DNA of 29,462 nucleotides from a virus. The notes under the pieces were generated by a model. It ran no database searches. It had not been told where the DNA came from and was given only the letters and a program-made list of their open reading frames with translations. Location of the stretch: the IMG/VR virus record IMGVR_UViG_3300029915_000918, positions 1 to 29,462 of that record; one strand, 5' to 3'. Both the position numbers and the translations under genes were made by a program. Positions 1,195 through 27,532 of this stretch are shown piece by piece. Numbering within the stretch: position 1 is the stretch's first letter; each line of letters begins with the position of its first letter.

Positions 1195-1326
1195 TATTGC
1201 AAATCAATAGGGCCGGATCAATAATAGCTGCTCTGGCTGGTCTTCCAAGCCCTCCCCCATCCTTGCCAGCAATTCGTTTTTCGTTGATTCAACTTTCCCA
1301 TGACGCACCCGATCTGGAGATTGCCA

Positions 1327-4300
1327 ATGACGTTGAAGCTGCTTCGCACTACCTTCCTGCTTGCAATCGTTGCGTTTTGCGTGGTGAATGCGCGCGCTCA
1401 AAGCAGGCCGCAAATCACGCAGGCCATCGATGCCTCCGTTCGCCACACCATCGCCAATAGTGTGCCGGCCGAAGTGCATTCGGCCAGCGATCTGGGCCGC
1501 GCCTCCACGACGCTTCCCATGAAGGATATGATGCTGCGCCTCAAGCCGTCGGCGGCGCAAACCGCGTCACTGGCCCGGTTCATGGACGACGTGCAAAATG
1601 CCAAGTCGCCGAGTTATCATCACTGGCTCACTCCGGCTCAATTTGGCGCGCAATATGGCGTCGCGGATGCCGACGTGCAAACCATCACGGCCTGGCTCGT
1701 GGCGAACGGATTTACCGTGCATGAGGTCGCCAAGGGCAAGGGATGGATTCGCTTCTCCGGCACTGCGGGGCAAGTCGAGAATGCGTTTGCGACCGAGATT
1801 CACGGCTATCAGGCCGCGGGAGTCAAGCATTACGCCAACGCGCTTCCCATCTCTCTGCCTCAGGCGCTTGCGCCGGCGGTGGCCGGTCTGGTGAGCTTGA
1901 ACAGCTTCATCAAATCTCCTCTGCACACAGACCTGGCGCAGTTGAAGCGCGGCGCGAATGGCAAGTTGCTGCGTGCCAGTAGCGCGGCTCCAGTGGAAAG
2001 CGGCCTCTCGGGCGTACTGGATCAAGGGTTAGCCGCGCATCCCAACTTCACCTCGCAGGGGTCACCCGAGGAGACGTTTCTCACTCCCGGCGACTTTGCC
2101 AAAATCTATAACACTTCTTCGCTGCTCAGCGCGGGCAACGACGGCACTGGTGTGTCCATCGCCATCGTTGGGCGCTCTGACATCAGCCTCTCCGACGTTG
2201 AGGCATTTCGCACCGTCTTTGCGCTGCCCTTCAACGATCCGGCGGTGATTTATGCCAGCAGCGATCCGGGCGTGATCTCGGGCGATGACGAAGAAGCGAT
2301 TCTCGACCTGGAGTGGTCCGGCGCGGTCGCTCCCAAGGCCAAAATCAATTACGTGATCGGCGCCAGCACTTATTCAACCGACGGCGTGGACATCTCTGCC
2401 GCGTACATTGTTGACAATGCCGTGGCTCCCATCATGTCGGTCAGTTTCGGCGTCTGCGAGCAGAAGACCAGCCAGGACCAACTGGACTTTTACAACAACC
2501 TCTGGAAGCAAGCCGCGGCGGAAGGCATCTCGGTCTTTGTCTCCTCTGGCGACGCGGGCTCCAGCGCGTGCGACGTTCCCTCGGAGTATCGGGCCTCGAA
2601 GTATGGTCTGGGCGTGAATGCGCTCGCCTCCACGCCCTATAACACCGCGGTTGGCGGCACGGAATTTGCCGATACCGATGTGAACAGTTATTGGAATACA
2701 ACCGTTGGCGCGGATCAGTCTTCGGCCAAAGGTTACATTCCCGAGGCGGTTTGGAACGAGAGCTGCAATACGAATCTTTCCATCAGCAGCGATAACTGCT
2801 TCTACGATCCAACCTACGAGCAAACTTATGCCACCGGCGGCGGCGCCAGCAACTGTTCCGTGCATCCCGTTGGCGGCACGGCCAGCATCTTAACCGGCCT
2901 TTACGATTGCACCAAGGGATACGCCAAGCCAAGCTGGCAAACGGGCACGGGCGTTCCCAGTGACGGAGCCCGCGATCTTCCCGATGTTTCGCTGGCCGCC
3001 GCCAGCCTCCACGACGGCTACATGATCTGCTACAACGGTTCCTGCCAATGGACCACCAGCAGTAATGGCGTTGTAACTCTGGATGCGGCCTCGATCATTG
3101 GCGGAACCTCGGCGGCTTCTCCCTCGATGGCTGGAATCATGGCCTTGGTGGAGCAAGAGAATGGAACCTTTCAGGGGCTTGCCAATTACAAGTTATATGC
3201 TCTGGCGGCGCAGCAATCAGACGCCAGCGCGTGTGACGCCTCGGCGGAAACCGATCCGACGCAGTCAAACTCCTGCGTCTTCCACGACGTGACCGCGGGC
3301 AGCAATGCGCTGAGCTGCCAAATCGGCAAAACCGACTGCACCGTCGCCATCAGTGGCAGCACCAGTTTTGGCTTGCTGACCGGCTACACGGCTGGTGCTG
3401 GATACGATCTGGCCAGTGGGCTTGGTTCAGTGAACGCGGCCAACCTGGTCACTGCGTGGAGCAATCTGTCCACGCTGCCCACCAAGACAACGCTAGCGGT
3501 TTCGTCCACCAGTTTTGTTCACGGAAGCTCCGTCCATGTCACGGCCAAGGTCAGTCCCGCCTCTGGCGCCGGAACCCCAAGTGGCCAAGTTGCGCTCAAG
3601 GCTAGTGGAACTGGCTTGCCCAGCAGCCCGATCGCATCCGACACACTCACCAGTGGAAAATACAGCGCGGCTGTTGGCAACCTGCCGGGTGGAACTTATC
3701 AACTGACCGCCTCGTATCCCGGCGATGCGACGTATGCCAGCAGCGTTTCCGCCCCTGTCTCCATGACAGTAACTCCCGAAAACAGCGTGCTGACGCCAGG
3801 CACCTTCGCGCCCAGCCGATTTTCCGTGCTTGGCCGGCATCCGATTGTTTCTGCCACAACCGTTACGCTTGGAACCAGCTTCTTCATCCAGGTCCAAGTC
3901 GCGGGCAACTCCGGCAAAGGCGTGGCGACTGGAACCGTGGCGCTCTCCGACGGAACCAAGACCTTCGGAACCTATCCGCTCGATCATGACGGCTCAATCT
4001 ATATCGAATGCGGGCCTGAAACCGCATGTGACTATCCGCTGGGTAACTATACCTTCACGGCCACTTACTCGGGAGATAGCAGCTTCAATGCCTCCACCGT
4101 TACTTTTCCCTTCGCGGTTACCCAGGGAAGACTCAACTACGCGGTCAGCATCAGTTCCGCCACGCCCCCTGCGGGAACAACTGTTATCGGCCAAGTCTAC
4201 TTTGAATATGACCCAGCCGTTTTGCCAACCGGCCAGGTGACATTAAACCGCGACGATACCAATGCTGTTTTGGCCTCGGGAAGCATCGGCAGCGACGGAG

Positions 4301-5799
4301 TGGCCAACATTCCCTTCGTGGCGGCAGCGGGAACTTATAACGTCACGGCCACTTATGCCGGAGACGCAAACTACACTCAGGGCACTTTGGTTGAGTATCC
4401 ACAGTTGACCACCACGGCTGCCGGCAGCGCCGCCACTACGCTGACGCTGACGCCCAGTTCAACCGTGGCAACCATGGGTGGACGCACACAGATCACCTTG
4501 CTCGTCAATCCCGTTAAGTCCGCCTCCACTGTTCCCACCGGAACCGTGACACTGCATAGTCCCGACGGATCGCAATCGCTGACTTATAACCTGACTGGCG
4601 GCCAGGTCTCGACTTACCTCACCTGGAACACCGCAGGCGCTCAATCTTACTACGCCACGTATAACGGCGACGCGAACTTTGCCGGCAGCAATACTTCGCT
4701 GACAACCTTCAACGTCGCGCAGGCCAAGCCCTCCATCCAATTGCAGACGCTTTCCAGTTATGCTGCGGTCGGTGCGCAAACCAGTGTTACGGCTTCTTTC
4801 GTGAGCGCCTTGTCATCTACTTCCGTAACCGCGCCCACCGGAACCATTCAGTTCTACGATTCCGTGGCCGGAGCCGCGCCTGTAGCCATCGGAACCGCCC
4901 TGCCGATGAATACGGGAAACGCCAGCAGCCTTGTCGCCACGCTCGCGCCCGTGCTTCCGCAGGGGAGCAACAGCATCACCGCGGTCTACTCCGGCGACTC
5001 GAACTGGGCCTCGACTACCTCGACCGCGGCGGTTACGGTTCTGGTTACAACGCCAGACTTTACCGCGACGGCCACGCCTGCCAGCCTCGTCATTACCGCG
5101 GGTCAAACCGCGACCGTGGCCATCGATACGCAGAGCATTCTCGGTTTCACCACCCCCATCGCTCTCAGTTGCGGAACGCTGCCCGTCGGCATCGCCTGCG
5201 ACTCCGTCACCGTGACGCCGGGCGCATCGGGCTCCATCACCCTCACATCAACCGCGCCAGGAACGGCTGCCAACAGTGCCTCGGCCCAGTCGCGCATGTG
5301 GTTTACCGCTTCTGGCGGATTTGCCATGGCTGGCCTTCTTCTGCTGGTCTCTCCCAAGCGCCGCCGCTACCTGCGGTTGTTCAGCGTCCTGTTTGCAATG
5401 AGCCTTGCGCTTGCGGCGACGGGTTGCGGCGGCGGCAGTGCCAAGACAACCAGCATGGCGCTCACCTCCTCAAGCACCAAGGCGGCCTTCGGCGTCAGCA
5501 TCAACTTGCAGGCCACGCTAAGCTCTACCGATGCGGTCACCGGAACGGTAACATTTTATGACGGAACAACGTCGATCGGATCTTCCGCTGTCACAAACGG
5601 ATCGGCTACCCTGAGCACCAGCGCGCTGGCGGTTGGAACCCACCCCATTACCGCCAAGTACTCTGGCGACAACCACAACCAGTCCAGCCAGAGCGCGGAT
5701 ACTCTCGAACAGACAGTTACCGGCGCATTCACCCTTACTCTCAACGCAACGGCGGGAACTCTGAGCCACTCCATCTCAGTGCCTGCCACACTCCAGTAA
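1327..5799 (+). CDS. Secreted S53 (sedolisin/kumamolisin) peptidase with Ig-like repeats
   Basis: A 1490-residue exported serine-carboxyl peptidase, probably used for scavenging protein at acidic pH. ATG 1327 is preferred over ATG 1300 because GGAG lies 7 bases upstream and the protein then opens with a signal peptide (LLRTTFLLAIVAFCVV, cleavage near ARAQ). The Pro-kumamolisin activation domain covers about residues 70-195, the S53 domain about 245-710. The family residues are present: E323 and D327 (EAILD), oxyanion D409 (SSGDAG), nucleophile S595 (GGTSAASP) and a C-terminal Ca-site-like DLASGLGS. About six Ig-like (Big_3 type) repeats follow (PTGTV.../YSGD...), to about 1290. Odd is an internal membrane hairpin (1324-1370) with KRRR between two hydrophobic stretches and a lipobox-like LAATGC (C1367), followed by one more Ig-like domain. 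Processing would remove the propeptide autocatalytically. Confidence 0.93.
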   Translation: MTLKLLRTTFLLAIVAFCVVNARAQSRPQITQAIDASVRHTIANSVPAEVHSASDLGRASTTLPMKDMMLRLKPSAAQTASLARFMDDVQNAKSPSYHHWLTPAQFGAQYGVADADVQTITAWLVANGFTVHEVAKGKGWIRFSGTAGQVENAFATEIHGYQAAGVKHYANALPISLPQALAPAVAGLVSLNSFIKSPLHTDLAQLKRGANGKLLRASSAAPVESGLSGVLDQGLAAHPNFTSQGSPEETFLTPGDFAKIYNTSSLLSAGNDGTGVSIAIVGRSDISLSDVEAFRTVFALPFNDPAVIYASSDPGVISGDDEEAILDLEWSGAVAPKAKINYVIGASTYSTDGVDISAAYIVDNAVAPIMSVSFGVCEQKTSQDQLDFYNNLWKQAAAEGISVFVSSGDAGSSACDVPSEYRASKYGLGVNALASTPYNTAVGGTEFADTDVNSYWNTTVGADQSSAKGYIPEAVWNESCNTNLSISSDNCFYDPTYEQTYATGGGASNCSVHPVGGTASILTGLYDCTKGYAKPSWQTGTGVPSDGARDLPDVSLAAASLHDGYMICYNGSCQWTTSSNGVVTLDAASIIGGTSAASPSMAGIMALVEQENGTFQGLANYKLYALAAQQSDASACDASAETDPTQSNSCVFHDVTAGSNALSCQIGKTDCTVAISGSTSFGLLTGYTAGAGYDLASGLGSVNAANLVTAWSNLSTLPTKTTLAVSSTSFVHGSSVHVTAKVSPASGAGTPSGQVALKASGTGLPSSPIASDTLTSGKYSAAVGNLPGGTYQLTASYPGDATYASSVSAPVSMTVTPENSVLTPGTFAPSRFSVLGRHPIVSATTVTLGTSFFIQVQVAGNSGKGVATGTVALSDGTKTFGTYPLDHDGSIYIECGPETACDYPLGNYTFTATYSGDSSFNASTVTFPFAVTQGRLNYAVSISSATPPAGTTVIGQVYFEYDPAVLPTGQVTLNRDDTNAVLASGSIGSDGVANIPFVAAAGTYNVTATYAGDANYTQGTLVEYPQLTTTAAGSAATTLTLTPSSTVATMGGRTQITLLVNPVKSASTVPTGTVTLHSPDGSQSLTYNLTGGQVSTYLTWNTAGAQSYYATYNGDANFAGSNTSLTTFNVAQAKPSIQLQTLSSYAAVGAQTSVTASFVSALSSTSVTAPTGTIQFYDSVAGAAPVAIGTALPMNTGNASSLVATLAPVLPQGSNSITAVYSGDSNWASTTSTAAVTVLVTTPDFTATATPASLVITAGQTATVAIDTQSILGFTTPIALSCGTLPVGIACDSVTVTPGASGSITLTSTAPGTAANSASAQSRMWFTASGGFAMAGLLLLVSPKRRRYLRLFSVLFAMSLALAATGCGGGSAKTTSMALTSSSTKAAFGVSINLQATLSSTDAVTGTVTFYDGTTSIGSSAVTNGSATLSTSALAVGTHPITAKYSGDNHNQSSQSADTLEQTVTGAFTLTLNATAGTLSHSISVPATLQ

Positions 5800-5958: not shown

Positions 5959-6053
5959 TGGTGGGCGAGGCGGGGATTGAACCCACAACCCCCGGCTTAG
6001 AAGGCCGGGGGTTTAGTCCAATTCAGCCGGTGCTCTAACACTGACTGCGCCTC
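5959..6053 (-). tRNA. tRNA-Arg(TCT) 3' remnant at the prophage attachment site
   Basis: Read on the minus strand, this holds an anticodon stem CCGGC/GCCGG with loop CTTCTAA (anticodon TCT, plus-strand 5999-6001), a T arm GTGGG-TTCAATC-CCCGC (5970-5986), the 3' acceptor strand CTCGCCC (5963-5969), discriminator A and an encoded CCA (5959-5961). The matching 5' acceptor strand GGGCGAG is absent. Two D-arm-like stretches exist instead (6012-6028 and 6031-6050), neither forming a proper stem. So it is not a working tRNA gene. It fits the displaced 3' end of a tRNA target after phage integration: host 3' half on the left, phage att sequence on the right, integrase beginning about 420 bases away. 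An intact tRNA-Arg(TCT) is expected at the other prophage end. Confidence 0.75.
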
Positions 6054-6470: not shown

Positions 6471-7655
6471 ATGGGACGCATCCCAAAATATCACGTGAAG
6501 AATGCAGCGGACGGTGCGCAGACTCGCAAAGACAAGTTGCAGCACACCGCCGATCACCATAACTGTCCTGCGTGTATCGAGGCTAATGTGCTTTTAATTC
6601 AAATCGACTCTGATTTTTCTCGCCTTCCTTTCAGACAGGCTTCCGCCCTTTGGATGGTTATGCGAAGGCAACGGAGGAACCTGAAGCCTCGCACCCATGA
6701 ATCCAATCAGGGTTACATTGATGCGCTCGAAAAGTTTTTCGGCGCGATCCGTCTTTGCGACATCACACCAGGTCACCTACGTGCCTATCAGATCGCACGT
6801 GCGAGTAATATCATTTCGATCAACGGCCGTGAGCAAAATCCATGGACGAGGGCGGCTGGGCATTCGATCATCAACCATGAGATTTCCGCGCTGGGCCAGA
6901 TACTCAAGCATTGCAAGTTATGGGAGAAAATCAAGCCCTATTATTCGCCCGAGGGAATCCCCAAATGGAGCCCGCGCGACATTCTTTCGGAAGAGGATGA
7001 GGAGGACTTGTTCTCGAAGGCCGCAAGCCACCCCGAGGCCGCGCTGGCTTATTGGGTTGCCTGCATCACGAACAACACAACGGCGGCTGGCTGTGAGCTG
7101 CGCGGCTTGCGGCTCAAGAACATCTTTCTACGGGATAAGGACGACATCTCTGAAATTTACATCCCGGAAGATGCCGTCAAGAACAACTCGCGCCCCCGCA
7201 AAATCGCATTGAACCGTACGGCGCGGTGGGCTGTTGAGCAGTGCTACAAGAGGGCATTGGAGATTGGCTGCACGGACCCCAACCATTACCTGTTTCCTTT
7301 CCGCCTCAACCGGATAAAGAAAGGTGAGCGGGCATCGGTAGGAAATGCCAAGTATGATCCGACGCGGCCGGCAACGCGCTGGTTTCTGCGTAAGAGTTGG
7401 GATAAGTTGCGCAAGGTCACCGGTTTTGTGAACCTCAACCCGCATGACCTGCGGCATCAGTGCATTACGCGCCTTTTGGAGAGCGGCGTGGAGCCGGAGA
7501 CGGTACGGGCCATTGCTGGCCACGTGACCGAACAAATGATGCAGTATTACAGCCATCACCGCCGCCAGACTAAATACGACGCGGTGATGGCTATCGAACT
7601 CAACAAAAAGGACCGCATTCAACCGGGGCCGCGCATGTTGCGCAAGAGCGCATAA
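6471..7655 (+). CDS. int: Phage tyrosine recombinase (integrase)
   Basis: A 394-residue site-specific recombinase that would integrate and excise the prophage at the tRNA-Arg site. The N-terminal part has CPAC near residue 34, then a SAM-like core-binding domain at about 60-150 (helices around ALEKFFGAIRLCDITPGHLRAYQ). The catalytic domain follows from about 175 to 375, with the tetrad visible: R211 (CELRGLRL), H325-R328 (HDLRH), H351 (AGH) and the nucleophile Y360 (QYYSH). GAGG lies upstream of ATG 6471. It is the first rightward gene after the attachment-site remnant, as expected for an integrase next to its att site. It is complete and undamaged. The arm-type DNA-binding domain at the extreme N-terminus is not clearly recognisable. 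Confidence 0.93.
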   Translation: MGRIPKYHVKNAADGAQTRKDKLQHTADHHNCPACIEANVLLIQIDSDFSRLPFRQASALWMVMRRQRRNLKPRTHESNQGYIDALEKFFGAIRLCDITPGHLRAYQIARASNIISINGREQNPWTRAAGHSIINHEISALGQILKHCKLWEKIKPYYSPEGIPKWSPRDILSEEDEEDLFSKAASHPEAALAYWVACITNNTTAAGCELRGLRLKNIFLRDKDDISEIYIPEDAVKNNSRPRKIALNRTARWAVEQCYKRALEIGCTDPNHYLFPFRLNRIKKGERASVGNAKYDPTRPATRWFLRKSWDKLRKVTGFVNLNPHDLRHQCITRLLESGVEPETVRAIAGHVTEQMMQYYSHHRRQTKYDAVMAIELNKKDRIQPGPRMLRKSA

Positions 7656-16823: not shown

Positions 16824-17756
16824 TTAGACCTCCGTTAATTCAAAGTTGACGCCATAGCGCTTGACGCCGTTGCCCCAGCCGATGTCAGAGACCTCGGGCA
16901 ACTTTGTGAAGCGAACCAGGCAGCCCAGCGGCTGGGTTCCCGCCATGCGGCCGTAGGGCGTGAGTGGAGTGAGCAACGCACAGGCAGCCTCATCCCACGT
17001 GACCGATGCGGAGCCATCGAACATGATGACCGAGGCGGTGGAGTTGGTGAGCGTGACGGTGAGGCCCACGCGAAAGCTGGCCGCATTGGCCGGCACGGTG
17101 AACTGATAGCCGTAGGTTTGCCAGCCGACGCCGATGGTTGCGGCGGTGCCGTTAACCGTTGACAGCGCGCCGCCGCTGGCATTCAGGAAAGATATGCTCA
17201 CCTGCGCGCCAAGAACACCCGCCGCAAGTGTGCCCTGGATCGCATCCAGAGCCGCTGTGAAGACGTAGACCTCGCCGGGAGTACAGGACACCGCCTGATC
17301 GCACGTGAGCGCGCCTGTGACGGTTGTGTTCGCGGCAATGGTCTTTGCGGCTAGGGTTCCGAACCTGATTGCCTGGGAGCCGTTCGCAGCCGGGGTAGTG
17401 ACGATGCCGATGAACTCCTGAGCCGGCGCGCTGGAGATGGCCCACCCCGAGACAAGATCGGATGCCGTGAGGGCGGGGAACTCAAAGGACCAGTTGGGCA
17501 AGAGATTGGGATAGAGAAAACTGTTTCCGCCACGCCCGGTAGTGGACATGAAGAATTCATCGAGTGCGCGGGTATCTTCAAGCACAAGGTTGCGGACGTT
17601 GATCTTCCACGTGCGCCGGGCGCGGGTGAATCGCGGGCGTGTGGAGACGTACCCGCTCTCCGCCTGATCCTTGATCGTGTCATCCTCGGTAGTCTTCGAG
17701 GTGTCCATGGACGGTTGGCGCGAAAGTGATGGAAAGATAAGTGGGAGCGTCGCCAT
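16824..17756 (-). CDS. Minor tail protein, lambda M-like, with inserted jelly-roll domain
   Basis: A 310-residue protein. The ends look like an M-type minor tail protein of about 110 residues: an N-terminal part with FPSLSRQPSMDTS and RARRTWKINVRNL up to about residue 85 (GGNSFLYPN), and a C-terminal part (GCLVRFTKLPEVSDIGWG to NFELTEV). Between them about 170 residues form a CBM4/9-like jelly roll (NWSFEFPAL..., GSQAIRFG..., GWQTYGYQFTVPANAASFRVGL...). The insert resembles the one in the fibre gene at 10227. It would be displayed on the tail tip and may bind sugars. The divergent Z-like gene starts 51 bases away. Confidence 0.8.
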   Translation of the reverse strand: MATLPLIFPSLSRQPSMDTSKTTEDDTIKDQAESGYVSTRPRFTRARRTWKINVRNLVLEDTRALDEFFMSTTGRGGNSFLYPNLLPNWSFEFPALTASDLVSGWAISSAPAQEFIGIVTTPAANGSQAIRFGTLAAKTIAANTTVTGALTCDQAVSCTPGEVYVFTAALDAIQGTLAAGVLGAQVSISFLNASGGALSTVNGTAATIGVGWQTYGYQFTVPANAASFRVGLTVTLTNSTASVIMFDGSASVTWDEAACALLTPLTPYGRMAGTQPLGCLVRFTKLPEVSDIGWGNGVKRYGVNFELTEV

Positions 17757-17807
17757 GTCTCAACCATGCGGCGATTATGGGAAAGGCCGCAAAATTGGAT
17801 CATGCAG

Positions 17808-18518
17808 ATGAAAGTGACAGTAGATATGAGCGAGGCAGTGGCTGGACTGGCTGACTTGCAAAAGCGGCAGATACCGTTTGCCATGGCCAGGACATTGACG
17901 GGATGCGCCAAGGCTGGCCAAGGTAAGGTGCAAGAGAGCTTGGGTGGAAAATTTACCCTGCGCAACAACTTCACTCGGCAAGGCATCCGTATCAAGCCGG
18001 CGGAAAAGAATGGCGCGGTGATCGAGGCGGATGTGCACACCGACACGGCCAACCGCAAGACAGGCGCGCCGGATTATTTGCTGCCGCAAGAGGACGGCGG
18101 CGAGAAAATTCCGCACGAAGGCCACGAGTACCTGGCTGTGCCTACCCGCTATCTGCGCCAGATGGCCCCAGGAGCGATTCCTGAGGAGCTAAGGCCGCGC
18201 AGCCTATTGGGCGCTGTCGGAGGCCGCTACACGGCCATTACACGCAAAAAAGGCCAGATCGCACTGCGCAACCAAAAACAGGTGCGCGGGTTTGTGTTCT
18301 TCCTACAGGACATCTCAGACGGGCACAAGGCTATCATGGGCCGATACTGGACGGATCGGGACGCTTATCCGTTTTATCTGCTCATTCCTGATGCGCACAT
18401 CAAACCAAAGCTCGATATGCAACGGGACGTGGAACGCGCCGCGCAGGCGGCATTCCCAGAGCTATGGGCGGAAACTTGGCGTTCCATCATGGCGAAAGGG
18501 TTAAAAATTCAAGGTTGA
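17808..18518 (+). CDS. Minor tail protein Z-like, in reverse orientation
   Basis: A 236-residue protein with the features of Z-type tail proteins: an N-terminal helix pair (AGLADLQKRQIPFAMARTL), then FTLRNNFTRQGIRI, an EDGGEKIP motif, a lavPTRYLR strand, and a C-terminal helical end. In lambda, Z lies upstream of U and is needed for tail completion and DNA positioning. Here it is on the plus strand between tape measure and M, opposite to every other tail gene. ATG 17808 is chosen over 17766 because only it has a GGA upstream; ATG 17802 is also possible. It needs a promoter of its own within the 51 bases dividing it from the M-like gene, or read-through from the left. Confidence 0.65.
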   Translation: MKVTVDMSEAVAGLADLQKRQIPFAMARTLTGCAKAGQGKVQESLGGKFTLRNNFTRQGIRIKPAEKNGAVIEADVHTDTANRKTGAPDYLLPQEDGGEKIPHEGHEYLAVPTRYLRQMAPGAIPEELRPRSLLGAVGGRYTAITRKKGQIALRNQKQVRGFVFFLQDISDGHKAIMGRYWTDRDAYPFYLLIPDAHIKPKLDMQRDVERAAQAAFPELWAETWRSIMAKGLKIQG

Positions 18519-18548: not shown

Positions 18549-19058
18549 ATGTCCTCAAACCAAGCCAGAATGACCGTAGCAATCACTGGGATGCTCAGCG
18601 AGCCGCGCGCCATGATCGCAGCAAAAATCAACGCCACCGCCAATGCCCGCTTTGTTGAGCGTGTTGCTTTTGATACGGATTTTCTAATCGCTGCCCGGCT
18701 TGACACAGGAAAAGCAAAGGCGGCGGTAGTAAACGGAACGTTGATTCTCTCTGAATCTCAGCTTGACGAATATCTTCGCGCGGGGGAGTTTCCCTGGCAT
18801 GAGCGCAAAAGCAGAGTGAGTAACGGCGCTGGATTTCATGTCTCAGATATTGTATGGAAAGAGAAATTGCCAGAGGCGAGTCGATGCCGTATTCAGTACG
18901 CCGACCAGCAGGGAGAGCTTATAGATATGGAGGTCACTGTGATTTTTCCATTGGGGATTCATCCAAACGGCCATGAGTACGTTGGAGCTTACAGCGATGG
19001 CGGGTTCAAGACGTTCCGAAAAGATAAGGTGATCCGACTTGAACGTATGGAAGAGTGA
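18549..19058 (+). CDS. BRCT plus WYL-like fusion protein
   Basis: A 169-residue protein that looks like two ligand- or partner-binding modules joined. Residues about 8-82 match a ligase-type BRCT domain (VAITGMLSEPR, then VAFDTDFLIAARLDTGKAKAA and GTLILSESQLDEYL), though the usual Gly-Gly turn is ANA. Residues about 113-169 match a WYL-like fold: IQYADQQGELID, FPLGIHPNG, and the ending FRKDKVIRLERME like the FRLDRI motif. There is no HTH or enzyme domain. BRCT domains bind proteins or DNA ends, WYL domains sense ligands or nucleic acid. A TTG at 18528 with AAGG upstream is an alternative start. It is in the inverted cassette and reads more AT-rich than the flanking tail genes. Confidence 0.65.
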   Translation: MSSNQARMTVAITGMLSEPRAMIAAKINATANARFVERVAFDTDFLIAARLDTGKAKAAVVNGTLILSESQLDEYLRAGEFPWHERKSRVSNGAGFHVSDIVWKEKLPEASRCRIQYADQQGELIDMEVTVIFPLGIHPNGHEYVGAYSDGGFKTFRKDKVIRLERMEE

Positions 19059-19093: not shown

Positions 19094-19525
19094 ATGAACC
19101 GCAGTTTCAAATTTATGATCTTGGCATTAGCTTCCGCTTTTCTGTTGATTTGTGTGATCGTGCCAAAAATACCAAATTATGACGCCGGGATTATTGCGCG
19201 CGCAAACAGTTCACCGTCAACCTCAACAAGCTCGTCATCCTGCACCTCAGACGATTTTTCTCTGGCTAAAACCAAGGCAATTACTGAATACGATGCCGCG
19301 AAGCTCACCGGCATCATAACGAGTCATTGTGCGTCCGCCGCAGGTGTGCAACTCAAATGGACCGCGTTCAATTCTGACGGAACCGTTGCATTTTCTAACG
19401 ATTTCTGGCCCGCGAGTACGACCAACATCCCGCCACACTCAGACTATGCGTTTGAGATGATGGAGTCAGCCCCGCGCGGCAAATGGACATACCGCGTGGA
19501 GCCGATCAAGGTAACCATCTGGTAG
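19094..19525 (+). CDS. Membrane-anchored or secreted small protein, possible moron
   Basis: A 143-residue protein starting at ATG 19094 with GGGAGAG upstream. A hydrophobic N-terminus (FMILALASAFLLICVIVP, residues 7-24) acts as signal peptide or membrane anchor; a Ser/Thr-rich linker (SSPSTSTSSSS) and a beta-rich outer domain with two cysteines (C50, C79) follow. I do not recognise a family. It is the last gene of the inverted cassette and ends 5 bases from the stop of the convergent tape-measure gene. An exported protein encoded against the late operon suggests expression in the lysogen, for example as a surface or superinfection factor; that is inference. Confidence 0.7.
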   Translation: MNRSFKFMILALASAFLLICVIVPKIPNYDAGIIARANSSPSTSTSSSSCTSDDFSLAKTKAITEYDAAKLTGIITSHCASAAGVQLKWTAFNSDGTVAFSNDFWPASTTNIPPHSDYAFEMMESAPRGKWTYRVEPIKVTIW

Positions 19526-23184: not shown

Positions 23185-23676
23185 TTATAAGCCCATGAAA
23201 CTCATGTTGATTGACGGGTCGAATCGTCCTACCTCGACATTCACATGGAAACTAATATCCACGCAAACCTGATCAGATGAGGACTTATCAACGTAGCCGG
23301 TTTCGACTTCGCCGGGATAAGTGTCCGAGACAAGCTGGCCCAGGGTTGGATCGATGCAGATGACCCGCCACGCATAAAGTACAAGCGGATCGGCAACCGT
23401 GCTGACGGGAACGGCAGGGATGGGCGGCGTTGCGGTTGGATCACCGGCAGTGCCGGCAACGGAGAGGCGCACAGTGATGACTGCCTCAACGTGCGCCGCT
23501 CTTTGATCGCAGTCATAGCCGATGTCGATTTTGGTGGAGAAAACATTGAAGGCTATTTCAGATTGGCCCACGGCTTCAAAGCGGTCACGGTAGGCAATGG
23601 CCGGCGATCCGGGCGCGTTGAGCAGCGCAAGGATCGCCTGGGCGGCTTGTTCCCAAATGGTGGTCTGGCCGGCCAT
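23185..23676 (-). CDS. Tail terminator / minor tail protein, lambda U-like
   Basis: A 163-residue protein with an N-terminal helix (TTIWEQAAQAILALLNAPG) followed by mixed strands including IDIGYDCDQRAAHVEAVITVRL and a C-terminal VDISFHVNVEVG. This layout and the place directly upstream of the tail tube gene fit a U-type terminator, which caps the tail and joins it to the head. A Pro/Ala-rich loop (TATPPIPAVPVS) is inserted in the middle. ATG 23676 overlaps the stop of the SSB gene as TGATG, so it is preferred over the TTG just before. Similarity is by pattern and position only. Confidence 0.65.
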   Translation of the reverse strand: MAGQTTIWEQAAQAILALLNAPGSPAIAYRDRFEAVGQSEIAFNVFSTKIDIGYDCDQRAAHVEAVITVRLSVAGTAGDPTATPPIPAVPVSTVADPLVLYAWRVICIDPTLGQLVSDTYPGEVETGYVDKSSSDQVCVDISFHVNVEVGRFDPSINMSFMGL

Positions 23677-24056
23677 CAAAAGGCCGCCTCGTAGGCTTCA
23701 TCGGGCGCGGCGGCGCGCTGGGAGCCGTCTTTGCCGTCAAGCAGTGCGAGTTCGTGGGCAATGACGTTGGTGCGCCAATGCTTGACGCCGGCGTCGTCTT
23801 CCCAACTGGTAGTACGGAGCTTGCCTTCAACGTAGACCTTGGAGCCCTTGCGCATGTAATCGCGGGCGACTTCAGCCAGGCGGCCGTAGAAGAGGACCGA
23901 ATGCCACTCGGCATGATCCTTCCACTCCTCACCTTTCTTGATGCGCTCGTTGGTGGCCAGGGAGGCCGTCGTCAGCAGCGTTCCACTGCGCAGGGTGCGG
24001 GTCTCTGGGGGCTGGCCGATGTTGCCCAGCAGGATAACTTTGTTCACGCTTTTCAT
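23676..24056 (-). CDS. ssb: Single-stranded DNA-binding protein
   Basis: A 126-residue SSB. The OB-fold begins at the start (SVNKVILLGNIGQPPETRTL) and runs to about residue 105, with the family blocks ASLATNERIKKGEEWKDHAEWH, LAEVARDYMRKGSKVYVEGKL and the WRTNVIAHEL strand. The disordered tail is very short, ending DEAYEAAF: acidic with a terminal Phe, so it may still recruit partners as the usual DDIPF-type tip does. ATG 24056 follows GAGG; the frame also opens 12 bases earlier. An SSB between connector and tail genes is an unusual place, since phages generally keep it with replication genes. Confidence 0.92.
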   Translation of the reverse strand: MKSVNKVILLGNIGQPPETRTLRSGTLLTTASLATNERIKKGEEWKDHAEWHSVLFYGRLAEVARDYMRKGSKVYVEGKLRTTSWEDDAGVKHWRTNVIAHELALLDGKDGSQRAAAPDEAYEAAF

Positions 24057-24115
24057 AGCTTTCCTCACGGTCAGGATTGAGCATTCGATTGATTGTTTCG
24101 GTGATCACTTTTGCC

Positions 24116-24806: not shown

Positions 24807-26837
24807 TTACGAGATTGCAATGTAGGGGTTGGCGACGAAGGCGGCAACGTGACGGCAAGCAACGTCGTGCAGCGCGCGCTGGGTGACGACAATCGCGCCG
24901 CTGGCGGCTTGGGTATACGGATCAACAACAATCTCACGCGCGCCCCAATCGGCAACGACCAACTGGCCCCAATCGCCAAAGATGGAGTTGTGCAGGATGG
25001 AGCCGGTAACGCCCGCCTTGGTTCCATTCTTGGCGAGCTGGTTGGTGACGGCCGCGCGATAGCCGGCGGGGCCTTGCGTGTCGATGCCCAGCGGGTCTTT
25101 GGGGCCGTCATCCCAGATGGGGAGGGCATAGCCGGATGCAAACTTCGGCGTGGCCTTGAGCTGAGCGCGAACCTCGGGCGTGAACATAAATCCAGAGGTG
25201 GCCACATCCGCATTCGCGGCAGCAGCGGTGGCTTCAAACGCCAGAATGTCAGCCCAGGTGAGCGGCTTGCCACCGTCACTGAATGCAGTGCCGGAAGGCG
25301 AAAGCAGGGTAAGGCCGGTGAGGTTCATCAGGCCAACCGGGTTCGCTCCGCCGATGGGGCCACTGAGCGCGGCCAAGTCGATGGCAAGCACGATCACCGT
25401 GTCCTGATCGGCGCGGGCCAGGCCTTCAACATCGGGCGCGGTTTCTGCCAGCAGTTCGACGGTCCATGCGGTCTGCGCCGAGATGCGGTGCGGAGTCACG
25501 GAAATGAAATCCATGGAGAGATCGGACGGGGTAACAGCCGCGCCCTCACCCACCCACTGCGCAGTGCCGGCACCGGACTGGCGGGGCAACCGGATGACCC
25601 CGGTCAAACCGCCCAGGCGGTGCGCGCCAAGCTGCTCAACGCGGGGCCGATTGCGCAAAAGCTCGATAACTTCAGGCCGCGTGTAGGTTGCCACGGCGGC
25701 AGACTCGGAAGTAACCGCGATTTGTCCGGCTCCGCTGCCGATGCCCTGCGTACCCAGGGCGCGCGACATAGAGTCAGGAATCAGCGGGCCTTCCGTGGTG
25801 ATCTTGAGGCGCTTCTTCAGTTCATCCGAGAATTCGCGTTCAAGGGCCGCATCGCAGAGGCGGGTAGGGAACGCGCCGGGGCGGGCAGCATTGGTGAGCG
25901 AACGGACAAGCCGGAAGACACTGAAGCGCTTCTGATCGGACTTATCCATTTCGCTGAAAAGGTTGGTTCCGGCGGTGCCTACCTTGCTGGCATCGTTGGC
26001 CACGCAAATCTTGCGCGAGACGAGATCGCGGAACTTGTCTGACGTGGTGCCATCGGCGATGGCTTTTTGCATTTCGTCCGTGGTGACGTACTTGCGGAAG
26101 TCGGAATCGGTCGCAACGGCTATGATGTCCTTTTGCCGCGCAAGCTCAAGTTCCGCTACGGATTTTTCGACCGGTTCGGCCATGTTTCTGTTCTCCTGTT
26201 TCGGTGGAAATTCAATGACAGGGGGAGCAGCGGGCGCGGGTTCCGCGCTACGCCGCAAGACGGTTTCGATTTCAACCGGGAAATTTTGGTCGCCGGATTC
26301 AGAGCGACCGGCACCGACGGTGAAATCGGCGGGCACGGTGACGAGAGATGCGTCGAACGGCTCCCAATCGGTTACGCGGCATTCGTCGGGCGCATCGGGG
26401 TTATCCTCATCCTCGGTACGCACCATCTTGTGAACGCGGTAGCCAACGGACGCCGACGTAAGAATCTTGTCGTCGTAATCCTGGCGCTTTTCTTGCGCAA
26501 ACGCCGAGCGGCTGAACGGACCCTCAACCACAAGACGGCCGTCTTTGATTTCGTACTTGTCAACAACGCCGAGCTGTTTGTTGGGATCGTGATTGAAGTT
26601 ATTGGGAACCTGGCCGGAATCGAGGCGATCCGTGCGAATGCTCTTCTTATCGTGCTGAAGAATCTCATTCGCCGCGCCCTCCCAGTAGTTCCGCAGATAC
26701 GGAGTTTCGCTAGAGACAGCAAAGCGGAACCGGCCCGGATCGGGGCCGGAAAGCCGCTCGCCCTCTTTTGGCTCCGCGTCAACTTTTGCGGCCCGATACT
26801 GCATTGGAAGCGCCGCCGGTATGCTCTTGGTTCTCAT
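24807..26837 (-). CDS. HK97-type prohead protease fused to major capsid protein
   Basis: A 677-residue single frame with two head functions. Residues about 20-185 form a U35/S78 prohead protease with H83 (NFNHDP), S130 (SASVGYR) and D162 (PFDASLVTVPA) placed like the catalytic set. The rest from about 219 is a capsid protein: a helical delta-like scaffold part (AELELARQKDIIAVATDSDFRKYV) and an HK97 fold (LIPDSMSRAL, WVGEGAAVTPSDLSMDFISVTPHRISAQT, NPVGLMNLTG). ATG 26837 lacks a good Shine-Dalgarno; upstream codons overlap the methyltransferase. An in-frame ATG at 26183 with AGGAG upstream could start the 459-residue capsid part alone. The fusion would carry protease into the prohead at a fixed ratio. 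Confidence 0.88.
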   Translation of the reverse strand: MRTKSIPAALPMQYRAAKVDAEPKEGERLSGPDPGRFRFAVSSETPYLRNYWEGAANEILQHDKKSIRTDRLDSGQVPNNFNHDPNKQLGVVDKYEIKDGRLVVEGPFSRSAFAQEKRQDYDDKILTSASVGYRVHKMVRTEDEDNPDAPDECRVTDWEPFDASLVTVPADFTVGAGRSESGDQNFPVEIETVLRRSAEPAPAAPPVIEFPPKQENRNMAEPVEKSVAELELARQKDIIAVATDSDFRKYVTTDEMQKAIADGTTSDKFRDLVSRKICVANDASKVGTAGTNLFSEMDKSDQKRFSVFRLVRSLTNAARPGAFPTRLCDAALEREFSDELKKRLKITTEGPLIPDSMSRALGTQGIGSGAGQIAVTSESAAVATYTRPEVIELLRNRPRVEQLGAHRLGGLTGVIRLPRQSGAGTAQWVGEGAAVTPSDLSMDFISVTPHRISAQTAWTVELLAETAPDVEGLARADQDTVIVLAIDLAALSGPIGGANPVGLMNLTGLTLLSPSGTAFSDGGKPLTWADILAFEATAAAANADVATSGFMFTPEVRAQLKATPKFASGYALPIWDDGPKDPLGIDTQGPAGYRAAVTNQLAKNGTKAGVTGSILHNSIFGDWGQLVVADWGAREIVVDPYTQAASGAIVVTQRALHDVACRHVAAFVANPYIAIS
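26171..26210 (-). promoter_or_regulatory. Internal ribosome-binding site for the capsid part
   Basis: In the leftward sense an AGGAG precedes the in-frame ATG at 26183 by about 10 bases, exactly where the protease part ends (after a Pro-rich linker) and the capsid scaffold domain begins at residue 219. A purine-rich site at a domain border is unlikely to be chance and recalls the nested C/Nu3 arrangement of lambda. Confidence 0.6.
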
Positions 26838-26880
26838 ACTTTGACGTTGCGCCCGAAACGGAAAAGGCCGCCAATTCGGC

Positions 26881-27532
26881 TCACACAGTAATGAGCATCT
26901 CCTGGCTGAGCCGCTGTGCCGCAATTTCGCAGTAACGCTCCTCGCGCTCGATGCCGATTGCAGACAAGCCCAGGGCCTTGGCAGCTTCCAACGTGGTTCC
27001 ACTGCCCATGAATGGATCGAGCACGGACTTACACGTGTCGGGCGCTTGCAGAATGGCCCAGCGCATCACGTCTTGCGGTTTCTGTGTGGGGTGTGTGCGT
27101 ACATCTTTGCAACCGGGCTGCACAAGAAACCCGTTCCATCGATAAGCGATGCGGCGCACGGCCTTGTTGAGATTGGTCCAAGCCAGTTCGCAGTCGGCAA
27201 AGTCTGTATTGCCGCGTAGCTTGTCCCACACGAGCCAGCACTTCGAGGGCGGAAGTTGAAAGTAATTGCCGCCGAAAATGATCTGATACGGCGCGCATGA
27301 GCGGATGAGGTCGATCAGCTCCGCATCGGGCGGAGACGCATCCCAGTCACTCAGCAAAACCGCTCTCATGACGCTTGACGCCTTTACCTGGCCGGTGTTT
27401 AGCGGAGCCCATATTGAGGCCATACGGCGGATCGGTGCAGAGAAGGGCAGCTTTTACGCTGCCCTCCGCTAACACCTCTCGGCAATCGCCGCAATAGATG
27501 GTGATGCCGGCATGTTCGTAATACGGAGTCAT
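26881..27532 (-). pseudogene. Beta-class N6-adenine DNA methyltransferase, frameshifted
   Basis: Two overlapping frames make one enzyme of about 216 residues. The first (27347-27532) starts MTPYYEHAGITIYCGDC and holds the catalytic TDPPYGL, ending at a TGA. The second (26881 to at least 27365) continues as SDWDASPPDAELIDL, has FGGNYF, WLVWDK, HPTQKP and the AdoMet motif DPFMGSGTTLEAAKALG. Motif IV before motif I marks the beta class, and DPPY indicates adenine-N6. The join needs a +1 shift near 27347-27365. The halves are otherwise well kept, so the break is recent, an assembly error, or a programmed shift at TGA-C. It lies just before the protease/capsid gene and would protect phage DNA. Confidence 0.8.

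What the first reader, a model, noticed from the sequence alone, without database searches (positions are those of the whole stretch)
18549..19058. Small BRCT plus WYL-like fusion encoded by a prophage
A ligase-type BRCT domain joined to a WYL-like domain without enzyme or HTH parts is an unusual combination. BRCT binds proteins or DNA ends, WYL senses nucleic acids or nucleotides in many defence regulators. A counter-defence, lysogeny or DNA-damage-sensing role is possible.
Basis: inference. Interest (0 to 1): 0.65.

Follow-up and report, generated by a model that had tools for sequence, protein, structure and literature searches.

The report
Prophage BRCT–WYL protein in cargo slot
A soil-bacterium prophage carries a small two-part protein, one part shaped like a broken-DNA-end binder and the other like a single-stranded-DNA sensor, in a genome slot where its relatives carry superinfection-immunity genes or a restriction system, so it is probably an accessory gene protecting the infected cell or the prophage rather than part of the virus particle.

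Summary
ORF 18549-19058 (+, 169 aa) is a BRCT domain (residues ~5-82) joined to a WYL domain (~100-166). Profile searches, an AlphaFold model (pLDDT 86) and Foldseek place the halves with RFC1/LigA BRCT and PafBC/BrxR WYL. It belongs to a rare, real family: 10 members aligned (nine besides the window), dN/dS about 0.17 between close phage copies, 7 of 397 Terriglobales genomes with a relative. The four residues that bind a 5'-phosphate in Rfc1 (T, G, R, K) are invariant. The WYL Arg-x-x-Arg is conserved, except Lys at the second position in the window. The host is Granulicella-like. The gene lies between an antisense gpZ-like tail gene and the tape-measure gene. In related phages this slot holds superinfection-immunity proteins, a complete type II restriction-modification set with Vsr, WYL proteins with other N-termini, or decayed WYL remnants. 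In an unrelated phage a 31%-identical copy sits between a Cro/CI-type regulator and an O-like replication gene. Most likely it is a lysogen-benefit cargo protein sensing DNA ends and ssDNA; that role is inferred, not shown. WYL-BRCT fusion was listed in one phrase by Makarova et al. 2014; the stand-alone family and its setting appear undescribed in what I could search.

The parts
18549..19058 (+). BRCT-WYL protein gene, 169 aa, ATG start
18561..18794 (+). BRCT domain, residues about 5-82; invariant T13, G14, R20, K55 (phosphate-site residues of the RFC1/LigA type)
   Evidence: residue roles from PMC9359705
18795..18848 (+). flexible linker, residues about 83-100, low pLDDT at 90-94
18849..19046 (+). 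WYL (Sm-like) domain, residues about 101-166; Y117, G136, K154, R157, D159 invariant; Y144 and R160 nearly so (K160 in the window)
   Evidence: residue roles from PMC11804915
17766..18518 (+). gpZ-like minor tail protein (phrog_1924), antisense to the other structural genes, 30 bases upstream of the BRCT-WYL ATG; marks one border of the cargo slot
19094..19525 (+). 143-aa predicted membrane-anchored protein following the BRCT-WYL gene; homologues in the same slot of L142, L095, L101
19531..21582 (-). tail tape-measure protein; the other border of the slot
16824..17756 (-). virion/tail structural protein beyond gpZ, conserved in relatives
24807..27002 (-). prohead protease/major capsid protein, used to find related phages
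6471..7655 (+). tyrosine integrase of the prophage
5959..6028 (-). tRNA-Arg, probable attachment site next to the integrase
   Evidence: attachment role inferred

Best explanation
The gene encodes a small soluble DNA-binding adaptor made of a LigA/RFC1-type BRCT domain and a WYL domain. Shown computationally: the two domains, invariant phosphate-site residues in the BRCT, a conserved arginine pair in the WYL, purifying selection, and a position in a variable antisense cargo slot between gpZ and the tape-measure gene. Inferred: the BRCT docks on a 5'-phosphorylated DNA end, nick or ss/ds junction, the WYL holds adjacent single-stranded DNA, and the protein therefore marks broken, linear or gapped DNA, such as incoming or replicating phage DNA. 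As prophage cargo it most likely helps the lysogen withstand other phages, either by occupying or blocking such DNA or by signalling its presence to a partner.
For: Domains. Invariant T13/G14/R20/K55 match the Thr/Gly/Arg/Lys of Rfc1 that bind a 5'-phosphate (PMC9359705). R157 and R/K160 fit, by motif position, the PafBC arginine pair whose loss abolishes ssDNA binding (PMC11804915). dN/dS about 0.17, both halves constrained. Slot contents in relatives: PF14373 superinfection immunity (L084 E=5e-14, L094, L099); in L177 an HhaI-like C5 methylase, Vsr and an MvaI/BcnI-family endonuclease; WYL proteins with other N-termini in L090 and L169. Remnants in L146 and (weaker) L083 show gain and loss. 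The gene has lower GC (0.51) than the window (0.58).
Against: No binding, expression or phage-resistance data. Five of the seven genomic copies (G281, G164, G344, G372, G176) sit among ordinary chromosomal genes, and no defence genes were seen beside them, so the family is not tied to defence. The same T/G/K pocket binds phosphopeptides in other BRCT domains. The window's own second WYL arginine is lysine. No sigma-70-like promoter above chance was found, and the 30-base gap suggests co-transcription with gpZ, perhaps in the late phase.
Confidence: 0.42

Rival explanations
1. A lysogeny/DNA-damage control factor: the WYL/BRCT unit senses ssDNA or broken DNA and modulates a separate phage repressor or replication initiator, a split version of HTH-WYL regulators.
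For: In L143/L144 the gene overlaps the end of a Cro/CI-type HTH gene, faces a divergent HTH gene and is followed by an O-like replication initiation gene. In the G. aggregans prophage it lies between an excisionase-like HTH gene and a primosomal gene. WYL proteins are DNA-damage sensors (PafBC, DriD).
Against: In the window and L142 no regulator is adjacent; the gene is in the tail region, far from the integrase. The L143 copy is the most divergent (31%, long branch). No HTH is present in any member.
Confidence: 0.28
2. A replication/repair or DNA-end accessory for the phage itself, for example protecting or handling genome ends, nicks or gaps during replication or packaging, expressed with gpZ.
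For: The BRCT is of the ligase/RFC1 type. The gene starts 30 bases after the gpZ-like tail gene on the same strand. The phage carries an SSB-like gene in the structural region (23676-24068).
Against: It is absent from most close relatives with the same capsid and tail genes, so it is dispensable for replication and assembly. Chromosomal copies exist outside phages.
Confidence: 0.17
3. A phosphoprotein adaptor: the BRCT pocket binds a phosphorylated host protein and the WYL binds a nucleotide ligand, with no role of DNA ends.
For: The T-G...K pocket is shared with phosphopeptide-binding BRCT domains, and tandem-BRCT chains rank high in the fold search.
Against: The closest sequence relatives are LigA and RFC1 single BRCT domains, which bind DNA, and the invariant Arg20 at the Rfc1 Arg174 position favours the 5'-phosphate type.
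Confidence: 0.1
4. A decaying passenger with no function in the prophage.
For: The slot carries broken remnants in L146 and L083.
Against: Intact in the window and L142, with dN/dS about 0.17 in both domains.
Confidence: 0.03

Closest known systems
BRCT domain of NAD-dependent DNA ligase LigA and of RFC1
   Same: Sequence (1l7b 1.7e-9, 2ebu 2.3e-4 with the family profile) and fold; T, G, R, K of the 5'-phosphate site invariant
   Different: No ligase or clamp-loader parts; one member's BRCT carries an N-terminal membrane anchor; the usual BRCT Gly-Gly region reads N-A
WYL domain of PafBC / BrxR
   Same: Sm-like barrel matching PafBC at 1.7 A over 59 columns; R-x-D-R motif and WYL-motif tyrosine
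   Different: No HTH and no WCX domain, so not a transcription factor by itself
WYL proteins fused to other domains, including BRCT, listed by Makarova et al. 2014 (PMC4012209)
   Same: Same pairing of domains named in the text
   Different: That paper gives no family, context or function for it in the passages read; whether its example is this family is not known
GapS2 anti-phage protein (NCBIfam NF047932) and PADLOC candidate PDC-S48
   Same: 6 and 9 of 10 members match, best 6.9e-6 and 9.4e-9; for PDC-S48 the match is its C-terminal BRCT-like stretch, 337-406 of 411
   Different: The window protein itself does not reach the GapS2 model at E 0.1; the rest of PDC-S48 is absent here
Superinfection-immunity (Imm_superinfect, PF14373) cargo genes of related Granulicella-type phages
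   Same: Same slot, same antisense orientation
   Different: Membrane proteins with no sequence relation to BRCT-WYL

Membership tests
BRCT domain, LigA/RFC1 subtype | BRCT fold with phosphate-site T-G, R and K | tested here: met
   one member above the Pfam gathering score; residue roles PMC9359705
BRCT domain, LigA/RFC1 subtype | binding of 5'-phosphorylated DNA | not testable with these tools
   needs EMSA
WYL domain | Sm-like SH3 barrel with conserved basic groove residues | tested here: met
   the window has K in place of the second Arg
WYL transcription regulators (PafBC, BrxR/CapW, DriD) | N-terminal HTH DNA-binding domain | tested here: not met
   the model has only BRCT + WYL; no HTH family match
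NAD-dependent DNA ligase | adenylation and OB domains; TIGR00575 cut-off | tested here: not met
   16.1 bits against a cut-off of 444
GapS2 anti-phage protein (NF047932) | match above the family cut-off over the whole protein | tested here: inconclusive
   6 of 10 members match, best 6.9e-6, but not the window at E 0.1; coverage and cut-off not shown for the matching members
Prophage moron / cargo gene | non-essential, variable gene inserted among structural genes, replaced by others in relatives | tested here: met
Prophage moron / cargo gene | own promoter and terminator, expressed in the lysogen | tested here: inconclusive
   the consensus scan found nothing above chance; expression not testable here
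Superinfection-exclusion gene | protects the lysogen against other phages | not testable with these tools
   inferred from slot neighbours only

The most novel reading that the evidence does not exclude
A minimal two-domain anti-phage protein that recognises linear, resected or gapped DNA with a ligase-type BRCT (5'-phosphate end) and a WYL domain (ssDNA) at once, carried by prophages as superinfection immunity, with the WYL half as a common module to which different N-terminal parts are attached.
Probability: 0.2. Interest if true: 0.7.

Novelty: new variant of a known kind. Interest (0 to 1): 0.45.

Why it matters
If right, it shows WYL sensing separated from transcription control and joined to a DNA-end-binding module in a protein of only 169 residues, with paired residue predictions that can be tested directly. 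It also reveals a reusable cargo slot in Acidobacteriota prophages that carries superinfection-immunity and restriction genes, a place to look for new defence genes in a poorly studied phylum.

Tried and rejected
tblastn of the protein in 50,697 phage records gave nothing; plasmids gave only a Rhodococcus hit at E=0.4, opposite to an annotated gene, taken as chance. Single-sequence pattern scans of viral and genome contigs found no relatives; relatives came from whole-genome searches around Granulicella and from alignment-based scans. Hits elsewhere in Acidobacteriota (396 genomes) and in 388 Pseudomonadota covered only the BRCT part, in open frames of roughly 700-900 aa, taken as LigA. The best viral structure match, a Serratia phage JS26 protein of the same length, has a BRCT but no recognisable WYL on reading its sequence; the profile match covers only its first half. 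The 'TGA inside' flag for the G. aggregans copy is its natural stop: the 153-aa ORF is complete. The VIA-align list is filled by BRCT chains and says nothing about the WYL half. Promoter and terminator scans were at chance level. GapS2 papers in the library did not describe the protein's domains.

Full report
Observation. The ORF at 18549-19058 (+) exists exactly as described; the same start is used by its closest relative (L142). On its own the window protein scores modestly: DNA-ligase BRCT families at 4e-4 to 1.6e-5 and a PADLOC WYL model at 0.027, with nothing in Pfam. With ten family members the picture is clear. The profile reaches LigA (1.7e-9) and RFC1 (2.3e-4) BRCT structures; WYL models match up to 6 of 10 members (best 1.3e-4) and Pfam WYL matches 3 of 10. 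One member passes Pfam's BRCT gathering score. AlphaFold gives two confident domains (blocks of pLDDT mostly 88-94) joined by a loose linker. Foldseek finds RFC1 BRCT first (E=1.3e-4), LigA, then PafBC (E=9.6e-4, 1.7 A over 59 columns, 29% identity) and BrxR for the second half.

Is it a gene under constraint? Against L142 (79% identity) dN is 0.105 and dS 0.60, with similar ratios for each half. So it is a maintained gene, not a chance frame. Its GC content (0.51) is lower than the window's (0.58), which suggests recent arrival (inference).

Where it is. The window is a 29.5-kb virus record. Its left 6 kb is host chromosome: the response regulator is 85% identical to Granulicella aggregans. 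An integrase follows beside tRNA-Arg. The right-hand part holds capsid, tail and tape-measure genes, nearly all on the minus strand. Three genes run the other way between the tape-measure gene and a conserved structural gene: a gpZ-like tail gene (phrog_1924, 3e-26), the BRCT-WYL gene, and a small membrane-anchored protein.

The slot. Searches with the capsid protein and with gpZ gave related phages. In all relatives where the region is held, gpZ is antisense and what lies between gpZ and the tape-measure gene varies. BRCT-WYL plus the membrane protein occurs in the window and L142 (80% identity). The membrane protein without BRCT-WYL occurs in L095 and L101. A superinfection-immunity protein (PF14373) was confirmed in L084, L094 and L099 (1e-13 to 1e-14); near-identical proteins are seen by inspection in L082, L092 and L102, and a similar one in L170. 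L177 holds a C5 methylase (M.HhaI 8e-54 and a closer cytosine methylase 3e-93), Vsr (4e-12) and an MvaI/BcnI-family endonuclease (47% to annotated enzymes), i.e. a complete type II restriction-modification set. L090 and L169 hold WYL proteins with other N-termini. L146 keeps only a WYL tail interrupted by a stop and L083 a short, weaker remnant. This is a cargo slot with turnover, and at least two of its occupant types are known protective genes.

The family. Among 397 Terriglobales genomes 7 carry a relative. Wider samples of Acidobacteriota (396 genomes; the only full-length hit was the same G. aggregans copy) and Pseudomonadota (388) gave otherwise only BRCT matches inside long frames that fit LigA. 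Alignment-based scans of the viral contigs found full-length relatives in L142 and in L143/L144, and WYL-only matches in L145 and L146; L090 and L169 add further WYL-only proteins. Five genomic copies lie among ordinary chromosomal genes (for example between tRNA-synthetase-like genes in G281), with no defence genes nearby as far as read by eye; the G146 contig is short. G281 carries an N-terminal membrane segment and a short domain that also occur in L169, where the BRCT is missing, so the BRCT and WYL modules recombine. A tree joins the window and L142 (96/95) and places G281 next (84/91); the L143 branch is long and its position unsure.

Other phage settings. In L143/L144 (two metagenomes, 9998 of 10000 bases identical) the gene overlaps a Cro/CI-type HTH gene, a second HTH gene is divergent, and an O-like replication initiation gene follows. 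In the G. aggregans prophage it lies between an excisionase-like HTH gene and a primosomal gene. These settings favour an early or lysogenic role, and are the main support for the leading rival.

Mechanism. Across ten members T13, G14, R20 and K55 are invariant. In yeast Rfc1 the corresponding Thr166, Gly167, Arg174 and Lys209 bind a 5'-phosphate at a DNA end (PMC9359705), although another structure of Rfc1 shows a different mode (PMC9293004). In PafB, R211/R214 and Y196 are needed for ssDNA binding (PMC11804915); by motif position these fit R157, R160 (K in the window) and Y144. The simplest reading is a protein that meets a 5'-phosphate end and the single strand beside it. That is inference from residues; no binding was tested. 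Given the slot, protection of the lysogen against other phages is the most likely use (about 0.4), with control of lysogeny or induction next (about 0.3).

Known or new. Makarova et al. 2014 list BRCT among the domains fused to WYL (PMC4012209), so the pairing is known. I found no paper on a stand-alone BRCT-WYL family, its residue pattern or its slot, within an open-access library only. GapS2 and PDC-S48, proteins linked to or proposed for defence, match several members; for PDC-S48 the matched stretch is its C-terminal BRCT-like end, which is a lead rather than membership. I rate it a new variant of a known kind.

Noticed in passing
L177 5349-7802: A complete type II restriction-modification set (C5 methylase, Vsr, MvaI/BcnI-family endonuclease) occupies the same slot between gpZ and the tape-measure gene in a related phage.
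   Followed up: yes
L084 10002-10367, L094 18183-18398, L099 17641-17841, L170 5258-5776: Superinfection-immunity (PF14373) proteins occupy the slot in several relatives, with a convergent DUF2846-like secreted protein beside them in some (L170 judged by sequence inspection only).
   Followed up: partly
window 17766-18518: The gpZ-like tail gene is antisense to the rest of the structural genes in all relatives seen; why a structural gene is kept in that orientation is unexplained.
   Followed up: partly
window 23676-24068: An SSB-like protein is encoded among head-tail genes and is conserved at the same place in relatives (59-66% identity).
   Followed up: no
window 19094-19525: A 143-aa membrane-anchored protein with a strongly conserved C-terminal half follows BRCT-WYL; also alone in the slot of L095 and with another protein in L101. 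No family match.
   Followed up: partly
L090 17817-18884 and L101 13939-14505: An uncharacterised cysteine-containing domain (43% identity over 140 aa) with an N-terminal hydrophobic segment is fused to WYL in L090 and stands alone in L101.
   Followed up: partly
window 26881-27423: N6/N4 DNA methylase upstream of the capsid gene, apparently truncated at its N-terminus (profile match from position 148 of 221) and overlapping the long capsid ORF's start.
   Followed up: no
window 1300-5799: Host-side 1499-aa kumamolisin-type protease with six Ig-like repeats next to the attachment tRNA.
   Followed up: no
L145 5671-6276: A phage protein with a WYL domain near its N-terminus followed by a Cys/His-containing tail (SWIM-like by eye), convergent to terminase-like genes.
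   Followed up: no
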